A stretch of DNA of 64,000 nucleotides from Corynebacterium gallinarum. Its GTDB lineage: Bacteria > Actinomycetota > Actinomycetes > Mycobacteriales > Mycobacteriaceae. The notes below the pieces were generated by a model, which was not told where the DNA came from, ran no database searches, and saw only the letters and a program-made list of their open reading frames with translations. Position numbers and translations under genes: made by a program. Where the stretch lies: NCBI RefSeq assembly GCF_014837045.1, contig NZ_JACSPR010000002.1, positions 372,001-436,000 on the forward strand. Reading direction: 5' to 3'. This document shows positions 50,916 to 62,705 of the stretch, piece by piece (position 1 is the stretch's first letter; each line of letters begins with the position of its first letter).

Positions 50916-51734
50916 ATGGCCGATCACGCACACAACCTGCGCGCCGACTTTGCCAAGGTCAAAGCGGCTAAACCGATCGGCGTGATCACCCGGGGCACCA
51001 CCGGTGTGAACCGTCTCAGGCGGTTCGACCGGTGGTGCTTTCATCATTCCCGCATCCGCGGCCTGCTGGCCCAGGCCGAGAACCCGCTGGTCCTGGACGT
51101 CGGTTACGGCGCCAGCCACACGACCACTGTGGAGTGGGGGCGCTGGATCCACCGCATGCGTGATAGCGCCACCGTCATCGGCCTCGAGATCAACCCCGAG
51201 CGCGTCCTACCCCCGCAGGGTGGCGTCAGCTTCGAGCTCGGCGGTTTCGAACTCGCCGGCTATCAACCGCAGGTGGTCCGCGCCTTCAATGTCCTGCGTC
51301 AATATGATGTGGAGCAGGTCGAGGCGGCCTGGACCACGGTGACCTCGCGCCTGGCTCCCGGCGGGGTGTTCATCGAGGGCACCTGCGACGAGATCGGTCG
51401 GCGGTGCAGCTGGATCCTGCTGGACGCGAGCGGCCCACAGACCCTCACTCTGGCCTGGCACCCGTGGGGTGTGTCGCGCCCCTCGGATGTGGCCGAGCGC
51501 CTGCCCAAGGTGCTCATCCACCGCAATGTGCCCGGCGAGAAGATCCACTCTTTGCTCACCGCGGCTGACACCGCCTGGGATTACGCCGCTGGCTGGGAAC
51601 CCTATGGCCCCCGGGTGCGTTGGGAGAAGGCCCGCGCCATGCTCATCGATCAGGGTTGGCCCATCGAGGTCTCCCGCCGTCGCGTCGGCGACGCCCTGCT
51701 CACCGTGCCGTGGGACGTGGTCGCGCCGAACTGA
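50916..51734 (+). CDS. SAM-dependent methyltransferase-like protein
   Basis: The 272-residue protein has a class I methyltransferase core: motif I LVLDVGYGASHTTTVEWG (near residues 56-73), an acidic second strand VIGLEINPERV, and VTSRLAPGGVFIEGTCDE as the motif near strand 5. The pair GYGAS replaces the usual GxGxG, so cofactor binding is likely but not certain. The N-terminal 45 residues and the Trp-rich C-terminal half are specific. It follows the DUF2505 gene by 12 bp and is probably cotranscribed. The substrate is unknown. Confidence 0.8.
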   Translation: MADHAHNLRADFAKVKAAKPIGVITRGTTGVNRLRRFDRWCFHHSRIRGLLAQAENPLVLDVGYGASHTTTVEWGRWIHRMRDSATVIGLEINPERVLPPQGGVSFELGGFELAGYQPQVVRAFNVLRQYDVEQVEAAWTTVTSRLAPGGVFIEGTCDEIGRRCSWILLDASGPQTLTLAWHPWGVSRPSDVAERLPKVLIHRNVPGEKIHSLLTAADTAWDYAAGWEPYGPRVRWEKARAMLIDQGWPIEVSRRRVGDALLTVPWDVVAPN

Positions 51735-51846
51735 GCTTGTCGACGCCTGATTGCCGAGGCCTCCGGTGCGGCATTGCCAGCAACCTTTCAGCCACTTTTG
51801 CGGGGTGCATCCGGCACGCGTCGGAGGGATAGGGAACACTGGGTGC

Positions 51847-52720: not shown

Positions 52721-52738
52721 TCATTCCCACCCTTGCCC

Positions 52739-52757
52739 TATACCCCCAGGGGGTATA
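52739..52757 (+). promoter_or_regulatory. CsoR-type operator in the copA promoter
   Basis: TATACCCCCAGGGGGTATA is a near-perfect palindrome with 9-bp arms, the typical CsoR operator with a G/C tract flanked by TATA. TTGCCC (52733-52738) and TACCCT (52756-52761) give a -35/-10 pair with a 17-bp spacer, and the operator fills that spacer. It lies 48 bp before copA, and CsoR is encoded in the same operon. Confidence 0.88.
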
Positions 52758-52804
52758 CCCTGAAGGGTAGTGAAACATACTGCGAAAGGGAGGATTGATC
52801 AGCG

Positions 52805-55089
<2,285 letters not shown>

Positions 55090-55093
<4 letters not shown>

Positions 55094-55416
55094 CCACCAG
55101 TGACCAGGTGTGCTGTGGAAGCAGCGATGAGCACCAGCACGGCTACATCGACGAGAAGAAGCGCTACCTCGCCCGGCTCAAGCGCATCGAGGGCCAGACG
55201 CGTGGTATCCACCGGATGATCGATGAGGAACAGTACTGCATTGACATCCTCACGCAGATCTCCGCGGTCAACTCCGCCCTGAAGAATGTGGCCTTCGGCC
55301 TGCTGGAGGACCACATGAGGCACTGCGTCCGCGACGCCGCCGAACTGGGTGGCGAGGAACTGGACGCGAAACTGAAGGAGGTCTCCGACGCCATCGCGAG
55401 GTTCTCGAAGGCGTGA
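55090..55416 (+). CDS. csoR: Copper-sensing repressor CsoR
   Basis: The 108-residue four-helix-bundle repressor has the CsoR family Cu(I) ligands Cys-His-Cys in QYCIDIL and [10 protein letters not shown], with [21 protein letters not shown] as the first helix. It represses copA-csoR and is released by Cu(I). Its ATG overlaps the copA stop (ATGA). The N-terminus [11 protein letters not shown] adds extra cysteines and histidines. It may also act at the palindrome at 60159. Confidence 0.95.
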
Positions 55417-55431
55417 TGAGTTGATATCTTG

Positions 55432-55466
55432 ACCCCGGCGCGCTGTAGGTGGCGTCGGGGTTTTGT
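55432..55466 (+). terminator. Terminator of the copA-csoR operon
   Basis: ACCCCGGCGC (55432-55441) pairs with GCGTCGGGGT (55452-55461) with one G-T pair, followed by TTTTG. It lies 15 bp after the csoR stop. Confidence 0.75.
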
Positions 55467-55555
55467 TATGCAAATTTGTCCTGGGCCGGGGGCCGGCGGG
55501 CCTGTTTCCATGTCACGATTGACAGAAGAGTTGGACACGGGAGAAGGAGCAGGAC

Positions 55556-56242
55556 ATGACCGATATGAACAATCAGTATCCGGGTTACACACCGCCCCCG
55601 GAGGATGGATACGGGGACGGGCGGGATGAGGCCCGGGAGGAGGTCCGCGATCAGAACCGGACACTCACGACCATCGCCACCGTGTTGGGTGTGCTGCTGC
55701 TCATCGCGGCGATCGTCATCGGGTGGATGTGGGCCACCCGGGATTCCGATGATTCCACCTCTGCTGCGGATACCACCACAACCTCCACCACCCCGATGAC
55801 CACCCCGATGACCACACCGGCGACCACACCGGTGGAGACCGTGACCGAGACTTCTGCGGCGCCTGAGCCGGAAGACCGCACAGTCACCAACACCGTTTCG
55901 GTGGAGGAAACCACCCAGACCATCACCCAGCAGACCACCGCGGCACCACCTCCTACTCCGGCTCCGGCGCCGGGCCCCTCCTGTGATCCGGCAGCCTTCC
56001 AGGCAGATGGCCATGACTTTGTCGACGGCCTACTGTTCTGCGAATCGGGCTGGGCCCGCGGTGGCCAGGACCAGAGCGACTATGTACGCATCTTCCAGTG
56101 GGTAAATGATTCCTGGCAGATGTACGCCCCCGACGGGGAGTCCACCACCACCGGTTATCCCTGCTATGACACTGCAGCGATGGCCACGCGGGGCGCTCCG
56201 CTTGAACTGATCAATCAGACCCTGGCCTGCTCGGAGGGGTGA
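55556..56242 (+). CDS. Membrane-anchored hypothetical protein with Thr/Pro-rich stalk
   Basis: The 228-residue product has a polar N-terminal part (YPGYTPPPEDGYG), one membrane helix (IATVLGVLLLIAAIVIGWMW), a Thr/Pro/Glu-rich stalk of about 90 residues and a small outer domain with four cysteines (CDPAAF, FCESGWARG, YPCYDTAAM, LACSEG) that could form two disulfides. The role is unknown. GAAGGAGCAGG precedes the ATG. Its last 90 bp recur almost exactly at 58764-58853 beyond a low-GC insert. Confidence 0.8.
   Translation: MTDMNNQYPGYTPPPEDGYGDGRDEAREEVRDQNRTLTTIATVLGVLLLIAAIVIGWMWATRDSDDSTSAADTTTTSTTPMTTPMTTPATTPVETVTETSAAPEPEDRTVTNTVSVEETTQTITQQTTAAPPPTPAPAPGPSCDPAAFQADGHDFVDGLLFCESGWARGGQDQSDYVRIFQWVNDSWQMYAPDGESTTTGYPCYDTAAMATRGAPLELINQTLACSEG
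56149..56238 (+). repeat. 90-bp direct repeat, copy A (3' end of the gene at 55556)
   Basis: This copy encodes the C-terminus from TGYPCYDTAAMAT to LINQTLACSEG. It matches 58764-58853 at 86 of 90 positions by eye. The start, CACCGGTTATCC, is identical in both, and so is the end CTCGGAGGG. The two copies flank the low-GC island. Confidence 0.9.
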
Positions 56243-56604
56243 TCACGGTCCTCTGTGCACAGGGGACCAACGTCCTCAAAAATCAGGTCTCCCTCGAAGC
56301 TAAGCGGACATCTTCGTATACAGAGTACTGAGGACTTATTAGGAAAATTCTTAGGTTCTAATTCCTCATAGAACCCTATGATAGTAGATTAGCTATTCCA
56401 CCTGAGGAACCATCTCCAAATAGAGATTAAAATTAGCTTGTGCACTAATAATTCGAAATGAACTCTGCTTAAACTTTGAACACTATAATTAATCCTAACC
56501 AATGTAGAATTATGGGCAGGCATTTCCCAGCACCCGCCCCTAATTTAATTAAAACTCAAGCCTTGAATTAGCTCACCCGTTCCCGAAACCTGAAGGGGGT
56601 TCAG
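56243..56604. other. Low-GC leader of the island, no gene
   Basis: These 362 bp drop sharply in GC compared with the genome. The first 25 bp contain an imperfect dyad GTCCTCTGTGCACAGGGGAC (56248-56267) that may end the upstream transcript. A consensus -10 TATAAT is at 56484-56489, about 115 bp before the next gene, without a clear -35. No open frame with a ribosome-binding site was found. Confidence 0.5.
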
Positions 56605-58533
56605 ATGCCTTTAAGACACCGTGCCATTTATCAATCGAGCAACTCACAAGCTTTACGTGAGGTAGCAGAGGAAGGGTGGAGAAGGTGGATTTCTTCTAGA
56701 AAACGGGAGAATCCGAACCTAGGAGCACTCGGACGCCAAGGCAACTTTGGTCAGATTAGCGACAATCGTCGTGCCCGTCACGAAGAATTCGCGGATCAAA
56801 ACATATCGACTGTGCGCATTACCGACATTGTTAATTTCGGCCAAGGGGACTATTTAGTCGTTATTACCTGGGCAACAGACGGTATTGATTCTTGGGTTCA
56901 GATTGATGGCATCGCACCGGATGAAGAATCACCCTACCAACCTCCAAAAATCAGCGATGCTCTATTTGAGTCGGCATGGGATCACCAAATTGACCTATTT
57001 GATACATCTCCCTTCATCCGATATTCACCAGCCCCGCAAGTGGTCAATGAAGATTCCGTCGATGACCTTATCAATTATGTCCTGAAGAATCCGGAACGTT
57101 CGACGATTGCTTTTATTGCGGGAACAGCCCCCAATTCAAACCAAGAAATATGGCGCCAAACGCTAGAAGAAAAGATCTTCACCAAAATCCCTGGCATGGC
57201 GACTATCTGGCTACTGGACGCAGACGCTACCGAATCATTCAATAATCGCGTTCCAGAAGACTACAAAGTTTTCCCCTCTTCCGTTCGAGCATTTCAGCCT
57301 ATGGTAAACACCAATAAGGTTGACGACCCACGGCGCCATAGGTGGTTTTCCAAAGCCGAAATTGCTACTGCCATTAGCGACCCCCAAGCCCAGCGACGGC
57401 TCCAAAACCGGTTATATTATATGGCACGCTCCGTGTCATTACGAGTAAAACTTCCGCAAACTCTTATTGAGGCAGATTCTCGTTTAGGCGATCTGGAAGT
57501 AACACGAGAAGTAGACCAGATCTTCAATATTCGGCCTGAGCAAAAATCCCTGCGGTCAGATGAACTTCGCCAGGCCATGAGTCGCGACCTTGGACCGCAG
57601 AGCAAGCCCATACCTAAACCTGCACCACCTGTTCCCGAAAGACAGAGCAAACCTACACCTAAACCTGCACCACCTGTTCCCGAACATGCCCCTTTCGAAT
57701 TTACCTCCATAGAGGAAAAAGCCCTTCCACAGCATTCTTTGATTACTACGCTGCAGCAGATTTTGGAGATTAGCAATTTGGGAACAACCGGGATTGATCT
57801 CACAGAAGAAGGGTTGATCTCATTAGTCTCGCTCGCCGAAAAAGGAAGCGATGCAGATTCCCAGATCCAAGAACTCCGAAATAAATTTCTCCTTCAGGCA
57901 AACAAGGCGCAGAAATACGAAAAAGACCTGAAAATCCTCAACCGAGAATACGCGGAGATGGAAGATTCTCTATTTTCAGTCCAAGAACTCAACCGTAAAT
58001 TCTACAAGGAGTTATCGAAGGCCAATCTGCCTGAAGAAGCATACTCCCCACCACCGGTGAGCCCAGACTCCCTCATAGAGCTCCTCGGCAGAATTGAACA
58101 TGAATTACCGCATATAGTATTTACGGGCGACCATAAAACAACTGAGTCCCTTGATGATCGCCCAACAAGCGCAACAATCGCGAGGCGCTGCTGGAATGCG
58201 CTCCAGACTCTGGAGGATTATGCGGTAGATTATGAGAAATATGGCAGCGTGGAAAGGTATTTGAGAGATGATCAAATCGCACAAACTTTTGCGGTTGATC
58301 ACGCCCCACGAGAGTCAAAAACAGTTGGCAACAATTCACGTTTTAGGGGAGCCCGTGAACTCCACGTCCCCCAAGAAGTCCATCCATCTGAGCAAATTTA
58401 CATGGAGGCTCATTTCCGCCTCGCCCAAGATGGCGGACAGGCACCACGGATGCATTATTACGATGCAATGGCCATTAACGGCCATATATACATCGGCTAC
58501 ATTGGGCCCCACCTACCCAACACCATGACCTAG
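56605..58533 (+). CDS. Unrecognised 642-residue coiled-coil protein of a low-GC island
   Basis: I cannot assign a family. Residues 1-310 look globular, with features such as STIAFIAGTAPNSNQEIW, TIWLLDADATESF and RAFQPMV followed by DPRRHRWF. Residues 332-361 are a proline-rich linker of two 15-residue repeats. Residues about 405-475 are a predicted coiled coil (IQELRNKFLLQANKAQKYEK onward). Residues 480-642 form another domain ending in HIYIGYIGPHLPN. There is no signal peptide or membrane segment. AAGGGGG lies 5 nt before the ATG. Codon use is much richer in A/T than the neighbours, which indicates recent transfer. The C-terminal ending resembles domains I associate with predicted defence proteins, which is only an impression. 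Confidence 0.75.
   Translation: MPLRHRAIYQSSNSQALREVAEEGWRRWISSRKRENPNLGALGRQGNFGQISDNRRARHEEFADQNISTVRITDIVNFGQGDYLVVITWATDGIDSWVQIDGIAPDEESPYQPPKISDALFESAWDHQIDLFDTSPFIRYSPAPQVVNEDSVDDLINYVLKNPERSTIAFIAGTAPNSNQEIWRQTLEEKIFTKIPGMATIWLLDADATESFNNRVPEDYKVFPSSVRAFQPMVNTNKVDDPRRHRWFSKAEIATAISDPQAQRRLQNRLYYMARSVSLRVKLPQTLIEADSRLGDLEVTREVDQIFNIRPEQKSLRSDELRQAMSRDLGPQSKPIPKPAPPVPERQSKPTPKPAPPVPEHAPFEFTSIEEKALPQHSLITTLQQILEISNLGTTGIDLTEEGLISLVSLAEKGSDADSQIQELRNKFLLQANKAQKYEKDLKILNREYAEMEDSLFSVQELNRKFYKELSKANLPEEAYSPPPVSPDSLIELLGRIEHELPHIVFTGDHKTTESLDDRPTSATIARRCWNALQTLEDYAVDYEKYGSVERYLRDDQIAQTFAVDHAPRESKTVGNNSRFRGARELHVPQEVHPSEQIYMEAHFRLAQDGGQAPRMHYYDAMAINGHIYIGYIGPHLPNTMT
57598..57687 (+). repeat. 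45-bp tandem repeat encoding a proline-rich linker
   Basis: Two adjacent 45-bp units encode QSKPIPKPAPPVPER and QSKPTPKPAPPVPEH. They are nearly identical in DNA over CCTAAACCTGCACCACC, so the duplication is recent. The linker joins the N-terminal domain to the coiled coil. Confidence 0.9.
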
Positions 58534-58763
58534 ATATTCTGAGTGGGATCTCTTCCATGCATATCTAAAACCCGTTTAGCGATAGCGCCCAAAATATCTG
58601 CCTGACCGTCTACAAACTGAACTGACTGCAGTGGTGATTACTATTTCCCAGCATTCAGATCAACCCCCTCGTTGCCACGTGGAGGATTACAATATCCACG
58701 AACCAGAAGAGCACAAAGATAAAACCAAACAGAAGGATCTCGCCCCAAACGACGTACCGGTAT

Positions 58764-58857
58764 CACCGGTTATCCCTGCTATGACACTGCAGCAATGGCC
58801 ACGCAGGGTGCTCCGGTTGAACTGATCAATCAGACCCTGGCCTGCTCGGAGGGTTAG
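58764..58857 (+). pseudogene. 3' remnant of a gene like 55556 (direct repeat, copy B)
   Basis: The 90-bp copy B (58764-58853) plus a stop encodes GYPCYDTAAMATQGAP and VELINQTLACSEG, then TAG. It differs from copy A at four bases, two of them silent. The 5' part of such a gene is absent: upstream is low-GC island sequence. It is either the original gene end displaced by an insertion or a truncated tandem duplicate. Confidence 0.85.
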
Positions 58858-58860
58858 TGG

Positions 58861-60087
58861 CTAGACCCGGGGACGCCCAATCCACGCGGCGATGAGCCCG
58901 AGGAGCGCGGCACCGACGAAGACCACGGCCATGGGGCGGGCGTCCACACCGAGGATGCCCACCAGTGGTGGGGCCATGGCACCGAGCACCGATTGGGAGA
59001 ATCCGATCACCGCGGAGGAGGCACCGCCGCGAAGGGGGCTGGAATCCATCGCCAGGGCGGTCGCACTACCGGAGATCAATGCCACCGGGGCAACGGCCAC
59101 AGCCAGGGCTGCGATGTACCAGGCCACATGCAGCTCAAACAGCACCGTGGCAAGCACCAGCACCGCGCCGAAGAACAGCACCACCAGGCCGGCGCCCACG
59201 GCACGCGCCGCGGTGAAGGTGCCCAAGGGGGTCTCACGGCCGATGAACCGGGAACCCGCGATACCCACACCGGCCATGATCAGCGAGAGCACAGCACCGG
59301 TGGTGGCATACCCTGCCGGCGTGAACCCGTGAAGCTGCTGGAACACAAACGGCGCGGAGGAGACATAGGAATACATCGCCATGAAGGAGAAACTGACCAC
59401 GGCGGTGTACATGACAAAGCGCAGCATGTTCGGGGTGGCCGCCGGGCGTTTGCCGGGACCGCCCGGTCCACTCTGCGCGCGCACGCCGTGGGTTTCGGGG
59501 ATGCGGATGAAACTCCACACACCGACCACCGCGCCCAGGCCTGCGAGCACGAGGAAGATGGTGCGCCAGGTGCCGAAGGCGAGGATCAGCGAACCCAGCA
59601 GCGGTGCCAGGGCCGGGACGATGAGGCCGGCGGCGGTGATCACGTTGAGGGCACGTGCGGCGCGATCACCCTGGACCATGTCATGGACGATCGCACGTCC
59701 CAGCACCATGCCGGAGCTGGCCGCAATACCCTGGAACAGGCGCAGGACCAGCATGATCTCCAGGGTGGGGGCAAAGGAGATGGAGATGCTGAACAGCACG
59801 AAGGCAAGGATGCCGACCAGTAGCGGACGTCGCCTGCCGAACCTATCGGACAGCGGCCCGATGACGATCTGGCCGAGCGCCAGACCGATGATGTAGACGG
59901 TGAGGGTGAGCTGGGCGGCACCGGTGGTGATGCCGAGATCCTCAGCGGCCATGGGCAGGCCGGCGAGATACGCGGCGGTGCCCAGCGGGGGCATGGCGGA
60001 GACGAGGACCAGCAGTGCGACAAGCCCCGCGGTCAGGGTGACGGCGGCGGTATCTGATCTGCGGGTGGTGTCGGTAGGGGTGGACAA
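58861..60087 (-). CDS. MFS transporter, Bcr/CflA type
   Basis: The 408-residue protein has twelve helices and the Bcr/CflA pattern: MPPLGTAAYLAGLPMAAEDLG, GQIVIGPLSDRFGRRRPLL (loop motif A) and LRLFQGIAASSGMVLGRAIVHDM. It is a drug/H+ type exporter family, though some relatives (CcoA/CalT) import copper. The start is TTG at 60087 with GAGG about 6 nt upstream. A CsoR-like palindrome lies 72 bp upstream, so copper control is likely. Its stop is 3 bp from the copy B remnant. Confidence 0.87.
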   Translation of the reverse strand: MSTPTDTTRRSDTAAVTLTAGLVALLVLVSAMPPLGTAAYLAGLPMAAEDLGITTGAAQLTLTVYIIGLALGQIVIGPLSDRFGRRRPLLVGILAFVLFSISISFAPTLEIMLVLRLFQGIAASSGMVLGRAIVHDMVQGDRAARALNVITAAGLIVPALAPLLGSLILAFGTWRTIFLVLAGLGAVVGVWSFIRIPETHGVRAQSGPGGPGKRPAATPNMLRFVMYTAVVSFSFMAMYSYVSSAPFVFQQLHGFTPAGYATTGAVLSLIMAGVGIAGSRFIGRETPLGTFTAARAVGAGLVVLFFGAVLVLATVLFELHVAWYIAALAVAVAPVALISGSATALAMDSSPLRGGASSAVIGFSQSVLGAMAPPLVGILGVDARPMAVVFVGAALLGLIAAWIGRPRV

Positions 60088-60158
60088 GGAGGGCCTCTTC
60101 TCTCAACAGTTATGCACACTGAAGCGGAGGTCCCCATCGAGACCCCACGGTAGAAACC

Positions 60159-60174
60159 ATACCCCAGGGGGTAT
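60159..60174 (-). promoter_or_regulatory. Second CsoR-like operator, upstream of the MFS gene
   Basis: ATACCCCAGGGGGTAT has perfect 7-bp arms (ATACCCC / GGGGTAT) around AG. It is almost the same as the copA operator at 52739. It lies between the phosphoketolase stop and the MFS start, in the promoter position of the MFS gene on the minus strand. Confidence 0.7.
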
Positions 60175-60192
60175 AGTTCCGCCACAGGGGAC

Positions 60193-60212
60193 CGTCGACA
60201 AGCTTGTCGACG
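60193..60212. repeat. Perfect 20-bp palindrome CGTCGACAAGCTTGTCGACG
   Basis: A perfect palindrome with no spacer lies 19 bp from the CsoR-like box and 46 bp after the phosphoketolase stop. It could be a hairpin in RNA or a dimeric protein site. No T-run follows on either strand. Confidence 0.6.
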
Positions 60213-60216
60213 ACCA

Positions 60217-60235
60217 AAACCCCCGCTCCGGGTTT
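60217..60235 (-). terminator. Possible weak terminator after phosphoketolase
   Basis: On the minus strand AAACCC and GGGTTT pair around a 7-nt loop and are followed by TGG. The stem is short. It lies 23 bp after the xfp stop. Confidence 0.4.
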
Positions 60236-60257
60236 GCCGGGCAGGGGCCAGGGGGTG

Positions 60258-62705
60258 TTAGCGCTCCGGCAGCGGCGGGCGCTGGACGTGGGCGTCGGAG
60301 GCGGGCTTGCGCTCCAGGTCCGGGGCTTCGAAGTCACCGAGAAGCCAGTTGCGGACCTCGGGCATGTCCTCGAGATGCTCGACGATGTACTCCTCGTGGC
60401 GCTCGAGCTGCTTCTGGGCCCAGTTGTAGAGCTCCAGGCCACCGGCCGGCACGTTGCGGGCGTTGTTGAGGATGTCCATGACCAGGTGGTAGCGGGAGAC
60501 ACCGTTGCGCACGACCATGTCGAACGGGGTGGTCGTGGTGCCCTCCTCCCGGAAACCGCGGGCGCGGAAACGGTCGGCGTCGGGGCGGCCGTGGACCAGC
60601 TGGTGGACTGCTCCCGGGTAGCCGTGGAAGGCAAAGACGACATCGACATCATCGGTGAACATCTCGGTGAAGTCGGATTCGCTCATGCCGTGCGGGTGAT
60701 CCTTCGGGCGGTACAGCGTCATCAGATTGATGACGTTGACGAAGCGGATCTTCAGCTCCGGCAGGGCCTTCTTGACGATCTCCGCGGCGGCGACCGCCTC
60801 CATGGTGACGACATCACCTGCGGTAGCGACGACGATGTCCGGCTTCTCATCGCCCAGGCCGTCGGTGCCGGCCCAGTCCCAGCGGCCATAACCGCGGCCG
60901 ACGTGGTCCTTGGCCTCATCCAGGGACATGTACTGCAGCTGTGGCTGCTTGTCCTGGATGACCAGGTTGACCTTGTTCTTGTCAGCGAAGATCTTCTCGG
61001 AGACAACGGCCAGGGAGTTGGCGTCGACAGGCAGGTAAATGCGGCCGACCGCCTTGTTCATGTTGAGCACGACGTTGAGCAGTTCCGGGGCCTGGTGGGA
61101 GAAACCGTTGTGGTCATTGCGCCAGCAGGTGGAGGACAACAGGATGTTCAGCGAGGGGGTCTTGGCGCGCCAGTCGAGGTGGTTGGCCTCCTGGAACCAC
61201 TTGCCCGCCTGCATCGTCATGGATGCGGACACCATGCCGAAGGCCTCATAGGAGGCGTACAGGCCGTGGCGGCCGGTGAGGTTGTACCCGTCGAGCCAGC
61301 CGTGGCAGTTATGCTCGGACAGCACCTCCATGACGCGGCCCTTGCGGGAGAGTTTCTCGTCGATGAGGTCGGTGCGCTCCATGAACGTACGGTCCGAGAC
61401 CTCGAAGACGGCGCCCAGGCGGTTGGAGTTCGTCTCATCCGGGCAGAACAGGCGGAAGTTGTCCGGGTTGTCCTCGTAGGCATCCCGCATGATCTCACCC
61501 AGGGTGCGGGTGGATTCGGCCTTGACGCGGCCGCGGGTCTCGCCGGTGACCTCGCGCTCGTAGTTCTTCAGGTCACGGAGTTTGAGATCCTGGGTCAACA
61601 GGCCACCGTTGGCGTGTGGATTGGCTGACATCCGCAGCTCACCCTCCGGGTTGTTGGCCTTGACCAGGTCGGTCAGGGTGCCGTCGGAGTTGAACAACTC
61701 CTCCGGGCGGTAGGAGCGCAGCCACTCCTCCAGCAGGCGCAGCTGCTTGTCGTCTTCCCTCATGCCGTCCAGCGGGACCTGGTGGGAGCGCCAGGTGCCC
61801 TCGTAGATCTTGTGGTCGACGGTGTGGGGGCCGGTCCAGCCCTTCGGGGTGCGCAGGATGATCATCGGCCACACCGGGCGTTCGCCGTCCCAGTTCTCGG
61901 AGCGGGCCTCGGTCTGGATGGCCTTGATACGGTCGTAGGCGTAGGTCAGGGCGTTGGCGAAGCGCTCGTGCATCCACGGCAGATCCTCACCCTCGACCCA
62001 GATGACCTCGTAGCCATGGCCTTCCAGCAGGGCCTGGACCTCATCGGGATCCTTGCGGGACAGGACGGTGGGCGAGGCGATCTTGCCGCCGTTGAGGTGC
62101 AGGATCGGCAGGACAGTGCCGTCATGCTCCGGGTTGAGGAAGGAGACGGACTTCCAGGACCCCTCGAGGGCACCGGTCTCCGCCTCGCCGTCACCGACGA
62201 CGGCGGCGACGATCAGATCCGGGTTATCGAAGGCTGCACCGAAGGCGTGGGACAGGGCGTAACCCAGCTCGCCGCCCTCGTGGATGGAGCCTGGCGTGGT
62301 CACCGAGGCATGGGAGGGGATGCCGCCCGGCGAGGAGAACTGGCGGAAGAGCTTGGCCAGGCCGTCGGCGTCACCGGTGATGCGCGGGAAGCACTCGGTG
62401 TAGGAACCCTCCAGGTAGGAGGCGGACACCACCGCGGGGCCACCGTGGCCGGGGCCGGTGATGTAAATGAAGTCCTGGTCGGTGTGCTTGATTAGGCGGT
62501 TGAGGTGGGCGTAGATGAAGGACAGGCCCGGGGAGGTGCCCCAGTGGCCGAGGAGACGGGGCTTGATATCGTCGGCGACGAGCGGACGCTCCAGCAGGGG
62601 GTTGGACTTGAGGTAGATCTGGCCGACGGTGAGGTAGTTGTTGGCGCGCCACCAGGCGTCAATCTGGCGGGCCTCTTCACGGGTAAGGGCGGGAACTGTG
62701 GTCAT
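60258..62705 (-). CDS. xfp: Xylulose-5-phosphate/fructose-6-phosphate phosphoketolase
   Basis: The 815-residue thiamine-diphosphate enzyme splits xylulose-5-phosphate (and often fructose-6-phosphate) to acetyl phosphate. Motifs are GHWGTSPGLSFIYAHLNRLI, GPGHGGPA, SPGGIPSHASV, the ThDP motif GDGEAETGALEGSW with LHLNGGKIASPT, and the C-terminal HGYPGAVHQLVHGR. Length is normal for the family. The ATG at 62705 was chosen; TAAAAT ends exactly 7 nt before it, so the mRNA is probably leaderless. No ptb/ackA-type genes lie beside it. Confidence 0.95.
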   Translation of the reverse strand: MTTVPALTREEARQIDAWWRANNYLTVGQIYLKSNPLLERPLVADDIKPRLLGHWGTSPGLSFIYAHLNRLIKHTDQDFIYITGPGHGGPAVVSASYLEGSYTECFPRITGDADGLAKLFRQFSSPGGIPSHASVTTPGSIHEGGELGYALSHAFGAAFDNPDLIVAAVVGDGEAETGALEGSWKSVSFLNPEHDGTVLPILHLNGGKIASPTVLSRKDPDEVQALLEGHGYEVIWVEGEDLPWMHERFANALTYAYDRIKAIQTEARSENWDGERPVWPMIILRTPKGWTGPHTVDHKIYEGTWRSHQVPLDGMREDDKQLRLLEEWLRSYRPEELFNSDGTLTDLVKANNPEGELRMSANPHANGGLLTQDLKLRDLKNYEREVTGETRGRVKAESTRTLGEIMRDAYEDNPDNFRLFCPDETNSNRLGAVFEVSDRTFMERTDLIDEKLSRKGRVMEVLSEHNCHGWLDGYNLTGRHGLYASYEAFGMVSASMTMQAGKWFQEANHLDWRAKTPSLNILLSSTCWRNDHNGFSHQAPELLNVVLNMNKAVGRIYLPVDANSLAVVSEKIFADKNKVNLVIQDKQPQLQYMSLDEAKDHVGRGYGRWDWAGTDGLGDEKPDIVVATAGDVVTMEAVAAAEIVKKALPELKIRFVNVINLMTLYRPKDHPHGMSESDFTEMFTDDVDVVFAFHGYPGAVHQLVHGRPDADRFRARGFREEGTTTTPFDMVVRNGVSRYHLVMDILNNARNVPAGGLELYNWAQKQLERHEEYIVEHLEDMPEVRNWLLGDFEAPDLERKPASDAHVQRPPLPER

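What the first reader, a model, noticed from the sequence alone, without database searches (positions are those of the whole stretch)
56149..58857. 90-bp direct repeats bracket a low-GC one-gene island
The 3' end of the gene at 55556 is repeated (86 of 90 bases by eye) at 58764-58853, with about 2.5 kb of low-GC DNA and a single gene between. Both copies keep a stop and the same C-terminus, as seen when an element integrates into a gene end and restores it. There is no integrase inside, so the event may be old, mobilised in trans, or a recombination between paralogues.
Basis: partly seen in the sequence, partly recalled or inferred. Interest (0 to 1): 0.75.

Follow-up and report, generated by a model that had tools for sequence, protein, structure and literature searches.

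The report
Repeat-bracketed one-gene island in Corynebacterium
A 2.5 kb stretch of foreign DNA carrying one possible phage-defence gene sits at the very end of a host gene and has rebuilt that end, the way integrating mobile elements do, but it carries no recognisable enzyme of its own to move.

Summary
56149-56238 and 58764-58853 match at 86 of 90 bases; the DNA between is 47% GC against 65% outside. The nearest relative (G042, about 90% identical flanks) has one copy of the repeat and no island, so this is an insertion, not a truncated tandem duplicate. G046 and G205 also have a single copy. Homology ends within a base of the stop codon. At repeat position 42 and at the stop, the copy fused to the gene looks derived and the far copy native. 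Both fit integration at a gene end, with the crossover probably in the 30 identical bases 56149-56178. The same architecture turned up four more times: at the 50916-gene orthologue in G042, at ccsB in this genome (with a tyrosine integrase), at ccsB in G051 (one gene, no integrase seen), and in Nesterenkonia around a relative of our cargo. The cargo (642 aa) belongs to a large actinobacterial family with partial matches to the defence models NsnC and HEC-07; its function is untested. Best reading: an att-flanked element without integrase, like a cis-mobilizable element (CIME): a new member of a known kind. Its ancestry and present mobility are not shown.

The parts
55556..56242 (+). target gene: 228-aa protein with a hydrophobic stretch, a Thr/Pro-rich linker and a conserved C-terminal part; its 3' end is the insertion site
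   Evidence: ORF; best matches 86% in G042, 51% in G046, 43% in G205; no Pfam match above cut-off
56149..56238 (+). left repeat copy, fused to the gene (attL-like); the present stop codon follows one base later
56149..56178 (+). 30 bases identical in both copies, probable crossover region; includes the codons of the conserved GYPCYDT motif
   Evidence: 20 of these bases are identical in G205
56243..58763 (.). island, about 2.5 kb, 47% GC, no tyrosine integrase, no tRNA, no credible Rfam family
   Evidence: in the other 241 genus genomes only 9 DNA matches of about 24-32 bases
56605..58533 (+). cargo gene, 642 aa: N-terminal part, thioredoxin-like middle domain (about residues 141-275), Pro-rich linker, long predicted helix/coiled coil (401-473), conserved C-terminal domain (about 484-642)
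57598..57684 (+). two 42-base units in direct repeat, coding for the Pro-rich linker of the cargo protein
   Evidence: family D4
58533..58637 (-). 35-codon open stretch on the minus strand whose stop overlaps the stop of the cargo gene; possible 3' end of a lost convergent gene
   Evidence: no Pfam or NCBIfam match
58764..58853 (+). right repeat copy (attR-like); its 3' part is probably the native gene end (stop at 58855-58857)

Best explanation
The island is a non-autonomous, att-flanked mobile element inserted by site-specific recombination into the 3' end of the 55556 gene. Inferred course: a circular element carrying its own copy of the gene's last ~90 bases recombined with the chromosomal gene end in the identical block 56149-56178. 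The element-borne copy now completes the gene (left repeat) and the native end was pushed to the far side (right repeat). The enzyme was probably a tyrosine recombinase supplied by a helper or by a parental element since lost. Cargo is one intact gene of an actinobacterial family that probably serves in phage defence. Shown: insertion, empty site, restored gene end, no tyrosine integrase inside. Inferred: the recombinase, the crossover position, the defence role.
For: Empty site with one repeat copy in G042, whose flanks align at about 90% and overlap by 98 bases. Single site copies in G046 and G205; the degenerate site pattern occurs in 4 of 242 genus genomes and is doubled only here. Homology stops one base before the stop codon; in the ccsB element of the same contig it stops one base after. 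There a 56-bp repeat (55/56) brackets 5.3 kb with a Phage_integrase gene that ends 16 bases short of the gene-attached copy. Polarity: at repeat position 42 G042 and G046 match the far copy, and G042's stop context does too; the single difference in the ccsB element has the same polarity. Comparable islands without a tyrosine integrase seen: end of the 50916-gene orthologue in G042, 107 bp, 106/107; G051 ccsB end, 176 columns, 95.5%, one 374-aa gene; Nesterenkonia L085, 56 bp, 89%, with a relative of our cargo. Of 15 length differences of 700 bp or more between the two genomes over 394,653 aligned own bases, 2 have such repeats at their edges; a third contains the ccsB element.
Against: No recombinase with this specificity was found: the core occurs nowhere else in the genome or in viral contigs. 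Polarity rests on very few bases: position 46 splits the outgroups (G042 and G205 with the far copy, G046 with the gene-attached copy), G205 has a third base at position 42, and the G042 island shows the opposite polarity at its single difference. Repeats of 90-176 bp are long for a minimal core. The two copies share 86 of 90 bases while G042 shares only 67 (left) and 69 (right) of 90, so the element-borne end was captured, or homogenised, within this lineage. In the test around relatives of the cargo, long flanking repeats were no more frequent than at control positions.
Confidence: 0.68

Rival explanations
1. Homologous rather than site-specific entry: a circle (or a concatemer) holding the cargo gene and about 90 bases of the gene end integrated by an ordinary RecA-type single crossover, or imported linear DNA joined one end by homology and the other illegitimately. 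No specific integrase was ever involved.
For: No tyrosine integrase seen in four of the five islands (with 110 and 113, 108 with 110, 43 with 101); repeats are long (90, 107, 176 bp) and differ in length at the same target ccsB (56 and 176 bp); in G051 they run past the stop through a terminator-like hairpin.
Against: All five lie at gene 3' ends, where arbitrary homologous entry has no reason to fall; in the window and in the ccsB element homology ends within a base of the stop codon; the ccsB element does carry an integrase.
Confidence: 0.2
2. Truncated tandem duplicate or recombination between paralogues: the right copy is what remains of a second whole gene, and the foreign DNA came later between the two.
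For: Weak paralogues of the C-terminal part are frequent in the genus (a match in 170 of 242 genomes) and sometimes adjacent, for example in G130 and G092; one control repeat pair, in L089, proved to be tandem paralogues.
Against: G042 has one gene and one end at the locus; G046 and G205 also have one; nothing of the gene upstream of the 90 bases precedes the right copy.
Confidence: 0.05
3. Sub-case of the best explanation: decayed remnant of a larger phage or integrative element that once had integrase and transfer genes between the repeats, the cargo gene being the last survivor (a CIME in the strict sense).
For: A 35-codon minus-strand open stretch abuts the cargo gene; CIMEs of 1.2-13 kb are described in composite islands at 3' ends of protein genes in Streptococcus salivarius (PMC7563491, passages); the integrase-bearing ccsB element shows a possible ancestor type.
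Against: No integrase, relaxase or phage remnant was recognised; the remnant has no family match.
Confidence: 0.45

Closest known systems
Cis-mobilizable elements (CIMEs)
   Same: Flanked by attL/attR-like repeats at the 3' end of a protein gene, integration and transfer genes absent, size within 1.2-13 kb, carries cargo (PMC5704250 passage; PMC7563491 passages).
   Different: Descent from an ICE or IME not shown; single, not in tandem with an integrase element; repeats not shown to be functional att sites.
Tyrosine-integrase elements at gene 3' ends (here the 5.3 kb ccsB element of the same contig)
   Same: Imperfect repeat of the gene end, homology stopping at the stop codon, gene-attached copy derived at the informative base.
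   Different: That element has an integrase next to the att site; the window island has none and a different target sequence.
Menshen component NsnC and PADLOC candidate HEC-07
   Same: Cargo C-terminal part matches NsnC (E 1.8e-12, residues 480-638) and its middle part HEC-07 (E 7.4e-10, residues 143-269).
   Different: Partial matches only; no companion genes in the island; relatives of the whole protein form a large actinobacterial family of their own.

Membership tests
CIME | flanked by attL and attR sites | tested here: inconclusive
   86/90 direct repeats and an empty single-copy site fit; recombination between them not tested
CIME | no integrase or transfer genes | tested here: met
   one sizeable gene, without a recombinase or relaxase match; no PF00589 match in the island
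CIME | derived from an ICE or IME | tested here: inconclusive
   no recognisable remnant; no related DNA in the genus beyond 24-32 base matches
CIME | moves by accretion with an ICE or IME | not testable with these tools
   needs strains and mating
Autonomous integrative element (IME, prophage) | encodes its own integrase | tested here: not met
   none of 9 PF00589 matches of the genome lies in the island; the only sizeable gene has no recombinase match
Menshen system | NsnC together with NsnA and NsnB | tested here: not met
   a single sizeable gene lies between the repeats; three-gene make-up recalled, partner domains (DUF262, OLD nuclease) from PMC10952713 passages
Menshen NsnC protein | match over the length of the NsnC model | tested here: not met
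   model positions 179-311 of 316 only
HEC-07 protein | match over the length of the HEC-07 model | tested here: not met
   model positions 166-291 of 553; a relative, L048, matches 162-434

The most novel reading that the evidence does not exclude
Corynebacterium and other actinobacteria carry a class of minimal gene-end cassettes: one cargo gene (sometimes defence-like) plus a copy of a host gene's 3' end, without recombinase, which spread by borrowing integrases in trans or by plain homologous recombination through the gene-end copy itself, so that any strain with the host gene is a target and the host gene is repaired on entry.
Probability: 0.2. Interest if true: 0.65.

Novelty: new member of a known kind. 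Interest (0 to 1): 0.42.

Why it matters
It shows how a single candidate defence gene can be gained without harming the chromosome and without a mobility gene that scans for mobile elements would catch. Because such islands lack integrases, integrase-based surveys miss them (PMC7563491 says that its own method could not identify single CIMEs and probably missed many elements). Looking for duplicated gene ends is a simple way to find them; by different routes it gave four further cases here, one of which does carry an integrase.

Tried and rejected
Helper in this genome: the core with up to 3 mismatches occurs only at the two repeats. Of 7 fetched loci around the seven tyrosine-recombinase genes other than the two best-scoring, XerC/D-like ones (label recalled), one showed the ccsB repeat and one (L069) a 42-bp, 88% pair 855 bases apart that was not pursued. 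No helper was identified. Serine recombinases were not searched.

The cargo family as a marker of such islands: besides the window itself, 1 of 71 other loci had a long flanking repeat (L085), against 2 of 134 shifted control positions in the same loci, so there is no enrichment. One control (L089) is tandem paralogues; the other (L117) was not examined. Of the 80 loci, 9 were left out; some ORF centres were in a wrong frame and served only as positions. One search also listed shorter or weaker pairs in L074, L090, L113, L114, L115, L117, L140, L144 and L150; only the ORFs of L074 were looked at. A tyrosine recombinase was found by tblastn with eight own integrases in 2 of 83 stretches, two of which repeat a locus. 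Cargo GC is below its flanks in 53 of 72 loci, mean -0.025, Wilcoxon p = 1e-5.

Relatives of the cargo by peptide patterns of the single protein: none confirmed in genome contigs or viral contigs; none in phage records; 9 plasmid records with partial matches. Site core in viral contigs: none. Rfam: one match far below its cut-off. Promoter and terminator scan: nothing. Structure: the full-length model has mean pLDDT 81; Foldseek in PDB gave no match at E <= 0.001; VIA-align gave mostly thioredoxin-like folds for about 141-275, Z 8.2-9.0, rmsd mostly about 3, mostly 100-115 residues, which its own note counts as middling. The only Cys of the protein is residue 529, so no CxxC. The C-terminal domain alone, folded without relatives, was poor (pLDDT 43.7) and was not searched; its fold stays open. 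A profile search of PDB sequences gave mostly coiled-coil proteins at weak E-values. A search for 'NsnC' in papers listed nothing relevant; 'HEC-07' is not in the main text of PMC8565338.

Repeat pairs own 217990/219140 and 227947/230339 were looked at and not counted as gene-end islands; sister 353793/361302 was not examined. One search used wrong coordinates and searched an unintended piece of sister DNA; its result was not used; the right query is.
Full report
What is there. The repeat pair is real and far beyond chance: 90 bases at 56149-56238 and 58764-58853, 86 identical, E = 4.8e-39 between the two flanks. Both copies read to a stop in the frame of the 55556 gene. Between them lie about 2.5 kb at 47% GC, against 65% in 5 kb on either side, with one sizeable gene, 56605-58533. 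No other match to the repeat or its core was found in the 3.12 Mb, 33-contig genome. The genus is Corynebacterium: genome G113 of the same genus has contig lengths equal to those of Corynebacterium meridianum records.

Insertion, not duplication. In G042, the closest relative found, window 52730-56245 and 58763-60326 lie side by side at about 90% identity and overlap in one 98-base copy of the gene end; there is no island. The degenerate site pattern occurs in 4 of 242 genus genomes: once each in G042, G046 and G205, twice here. Nothing of the gene upstream of the 90 bases precedes the right copy. So the right copy is not the stump of a second gene.

Which copy is native. The copies differ at repeat positions 31, 42, 46 and 53 and just after the repeat, at the stop. 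G042 agrees with the right copy at 42 and 46 and in its GGT-TA stop context, and with neither at 31 and 53. At 42 G046 also has the base of the right copy and G205 a third base; at 46 G205 agrees with the right copy but G046 with the left (read by eye). The best reading is that the right copy keeps the native end and the left copy, fused to the gene, was brought in; the crossover then lies in the 30 identical bases 56149-56178. These cover the codons of the conserved GYPCYDT motif, and 20 of them are identical in G205. This rests on few bases.

The same design elsewhere. (a) Own genome, 60 kb upstream: a 56-bp repeat (55/56) of the 3' end of a cytochrome-c assembly gene (Cytochrom_C_asm; I call it ccsB from memory) at C22:362328-362383 and 367632-367687 brackets 5.3 kb with a Phage_integrase gene (E 2.2e-18) that ends 16 bases short of the gene-attached copy. 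Its single difference has the same polarity as ours: G042, without the insert, matches the far copy. This shows in the same contig an integrase element with this signature at a protein gene. (b) G042, 4.4 kb from our site: a 107-bp repeat (106/107) of the 3' end of the orthologue of window gene 50916-51734 (methyltransferase-like by recall, no Pfam match) brackets about 4.3 kb with a truncated DUF3800-like gene and two DDE transposase genes. The window genome has no insert there. Its single difference has the opposite polarity. Among 242 genomes only G042 shows two matches to this end close together. (c) G051: a 176-column repeat (95.5%) of the ccsB 3' end and a terminator-like hairpin behind it brackets one 374-aa gene, weakly ATP-grasp-like and below Pfam's cut-off; no integrase seen. 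(d) Nesterenkonia contig L085: a 56-bp repeat (89%) of the 3' end of an M23-peptidase gene brackets a relative of our cargo gene and an RNase_T/BRCT gene; no tyrosine recombinase found.

How common. I compared C22:1-436000 with G042:C3:430000-905000. The collinear chain covers 394,653 own bases and has 15 length differences of 700 bp or more; 2 of 15 have long repeats at their edges, the window island and case (b). The ccsB element lies inside a third, larger insert and was found by a separate comparison. In the same DNA only 4 (own) and 2 (sister) direct-repeat pairs of 40-250 bp at 88% or more and 0.7-12 kb apart were found; three of these six are gene-end islands. Such structures are uncommon but recurrent. 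Around relatives of the cargo they are not enriched (1 of 71 loci besides the window, 2 of 134 control positions).

The cargo. The 642-aa protein has no Pfam match better than E 0.08 and no curated NCBIfam match. PADLOC models match in part: NsnC at residues 480-638 (E 1.8e-12) and HEC-07 at 143-269 (E 7.4e-10). Three relatives in Corynebacterium, in G075 and G113, also lie as lower-GC genes in higher-GC surroundings and match one or both models. An alignment search found 116 relatives; the 80 kept are all actinobacterial by their titles. Seven of the eight invariant columns of a 50-sequence alignment lie in the C-terminal domain. The model (pLDDT 81) shows a thioredoxin-like domain at about 141-275 without a CxxC motif, a long helix at 401-473 and a C-terminal domain whose fold was not identified. 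I infer a protein acting alone in phage defence; nothing here tests that. By the tests made it is not a member of Menshen or HEC-07: matches are partial and partner genes are absent.

Mechanism. The best-supported course is site-specific integration of a small circle at a gene end by a recombinase not encoded on it. Whether the island is a decayed larger element or was moved in trans cannot be decided here. Homologous entry through the gene-end copy remains possible, because the repeats are long and vary in length at ccsB.

Known or new. Elements that have lost integration and transfer genes but keep attL and attR are called CIMEs (PMC5704250, passage). In Streptococcus salivarius, composite islands at the 3' ends of rpmG, rpsI, fda and rplL include classical CIMEs of 1.2-13 kb with cargo genes (PMC7563491, passages). 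The window island works like a CIME; ICE or IME descent is not shown, so I file it as like a CIME rather than as a proven one. A search for Corynebacterium, defense island, integrase and direct repeat (8 of 111 papers listed, titles and abstract starts seen) showed no report of this island; I did not search further. That long att identity segments are usual in actinomycete elements is recalled, not looked up.

Noticed in passing
G042:C3, about 445.8-450.2 kb (L043/L163); window counterpart 51694-51745 has no insert: Second gene-end island 4.4 kb from the window's site in the sister genome: 107-bp repeat of a gene 3' end around a truncated DUF3800-like gene and two DDE transposase genes.
   Followed up: yes
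G000:C22:361080-367634 (L067, L184): 6.5 kb low-GC insert beside ccsB: a 5.3 kb integrase element with a 56-bp ccsB-end repeat, and outside it a DUF3800 gene 52% identical (over 140 residues) to the truncated one in G042. The integrase ORF overlaps an exonuclease-like ORF on the other strand and may have lost its N-terminal part.
   Followed up: partly
G051:C1:298.6-300.9 kb (L216): One-gene island (374 aa, weakly ATP-grasp-like) at the ccsB 3' end, bracketed by a 176-column repeat that includes a terminator-like hairpin; no integrase seen.
   Followed up: partly
G034:C1:493172-493448: A 30-base second match to the ccsB end about 125 bases from the first, recalling the gene-less microCIMEs of Streptococcus salivarius.
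   Followed up: no
between window 52656 and 52730 (G042:C3 side): G042 has a further 2.6 kb low-GC insert with two genes just upstream of the heavy-metal ATPase gene, without flanking repeats.
   Followed up: partly
window 58533-58637, minus strand: 35-codon open stretch whose stop overlaps that of the cargo gene; possibly the end of a lost convergent gene; no family match.
   Followed up: partly
G000:C22:217990-219206: A 67-bp repeat (94%) with copies 1.15 kb apart around a gene that looks galU-like (recalled label); nature not settled.
   Followed up: partly
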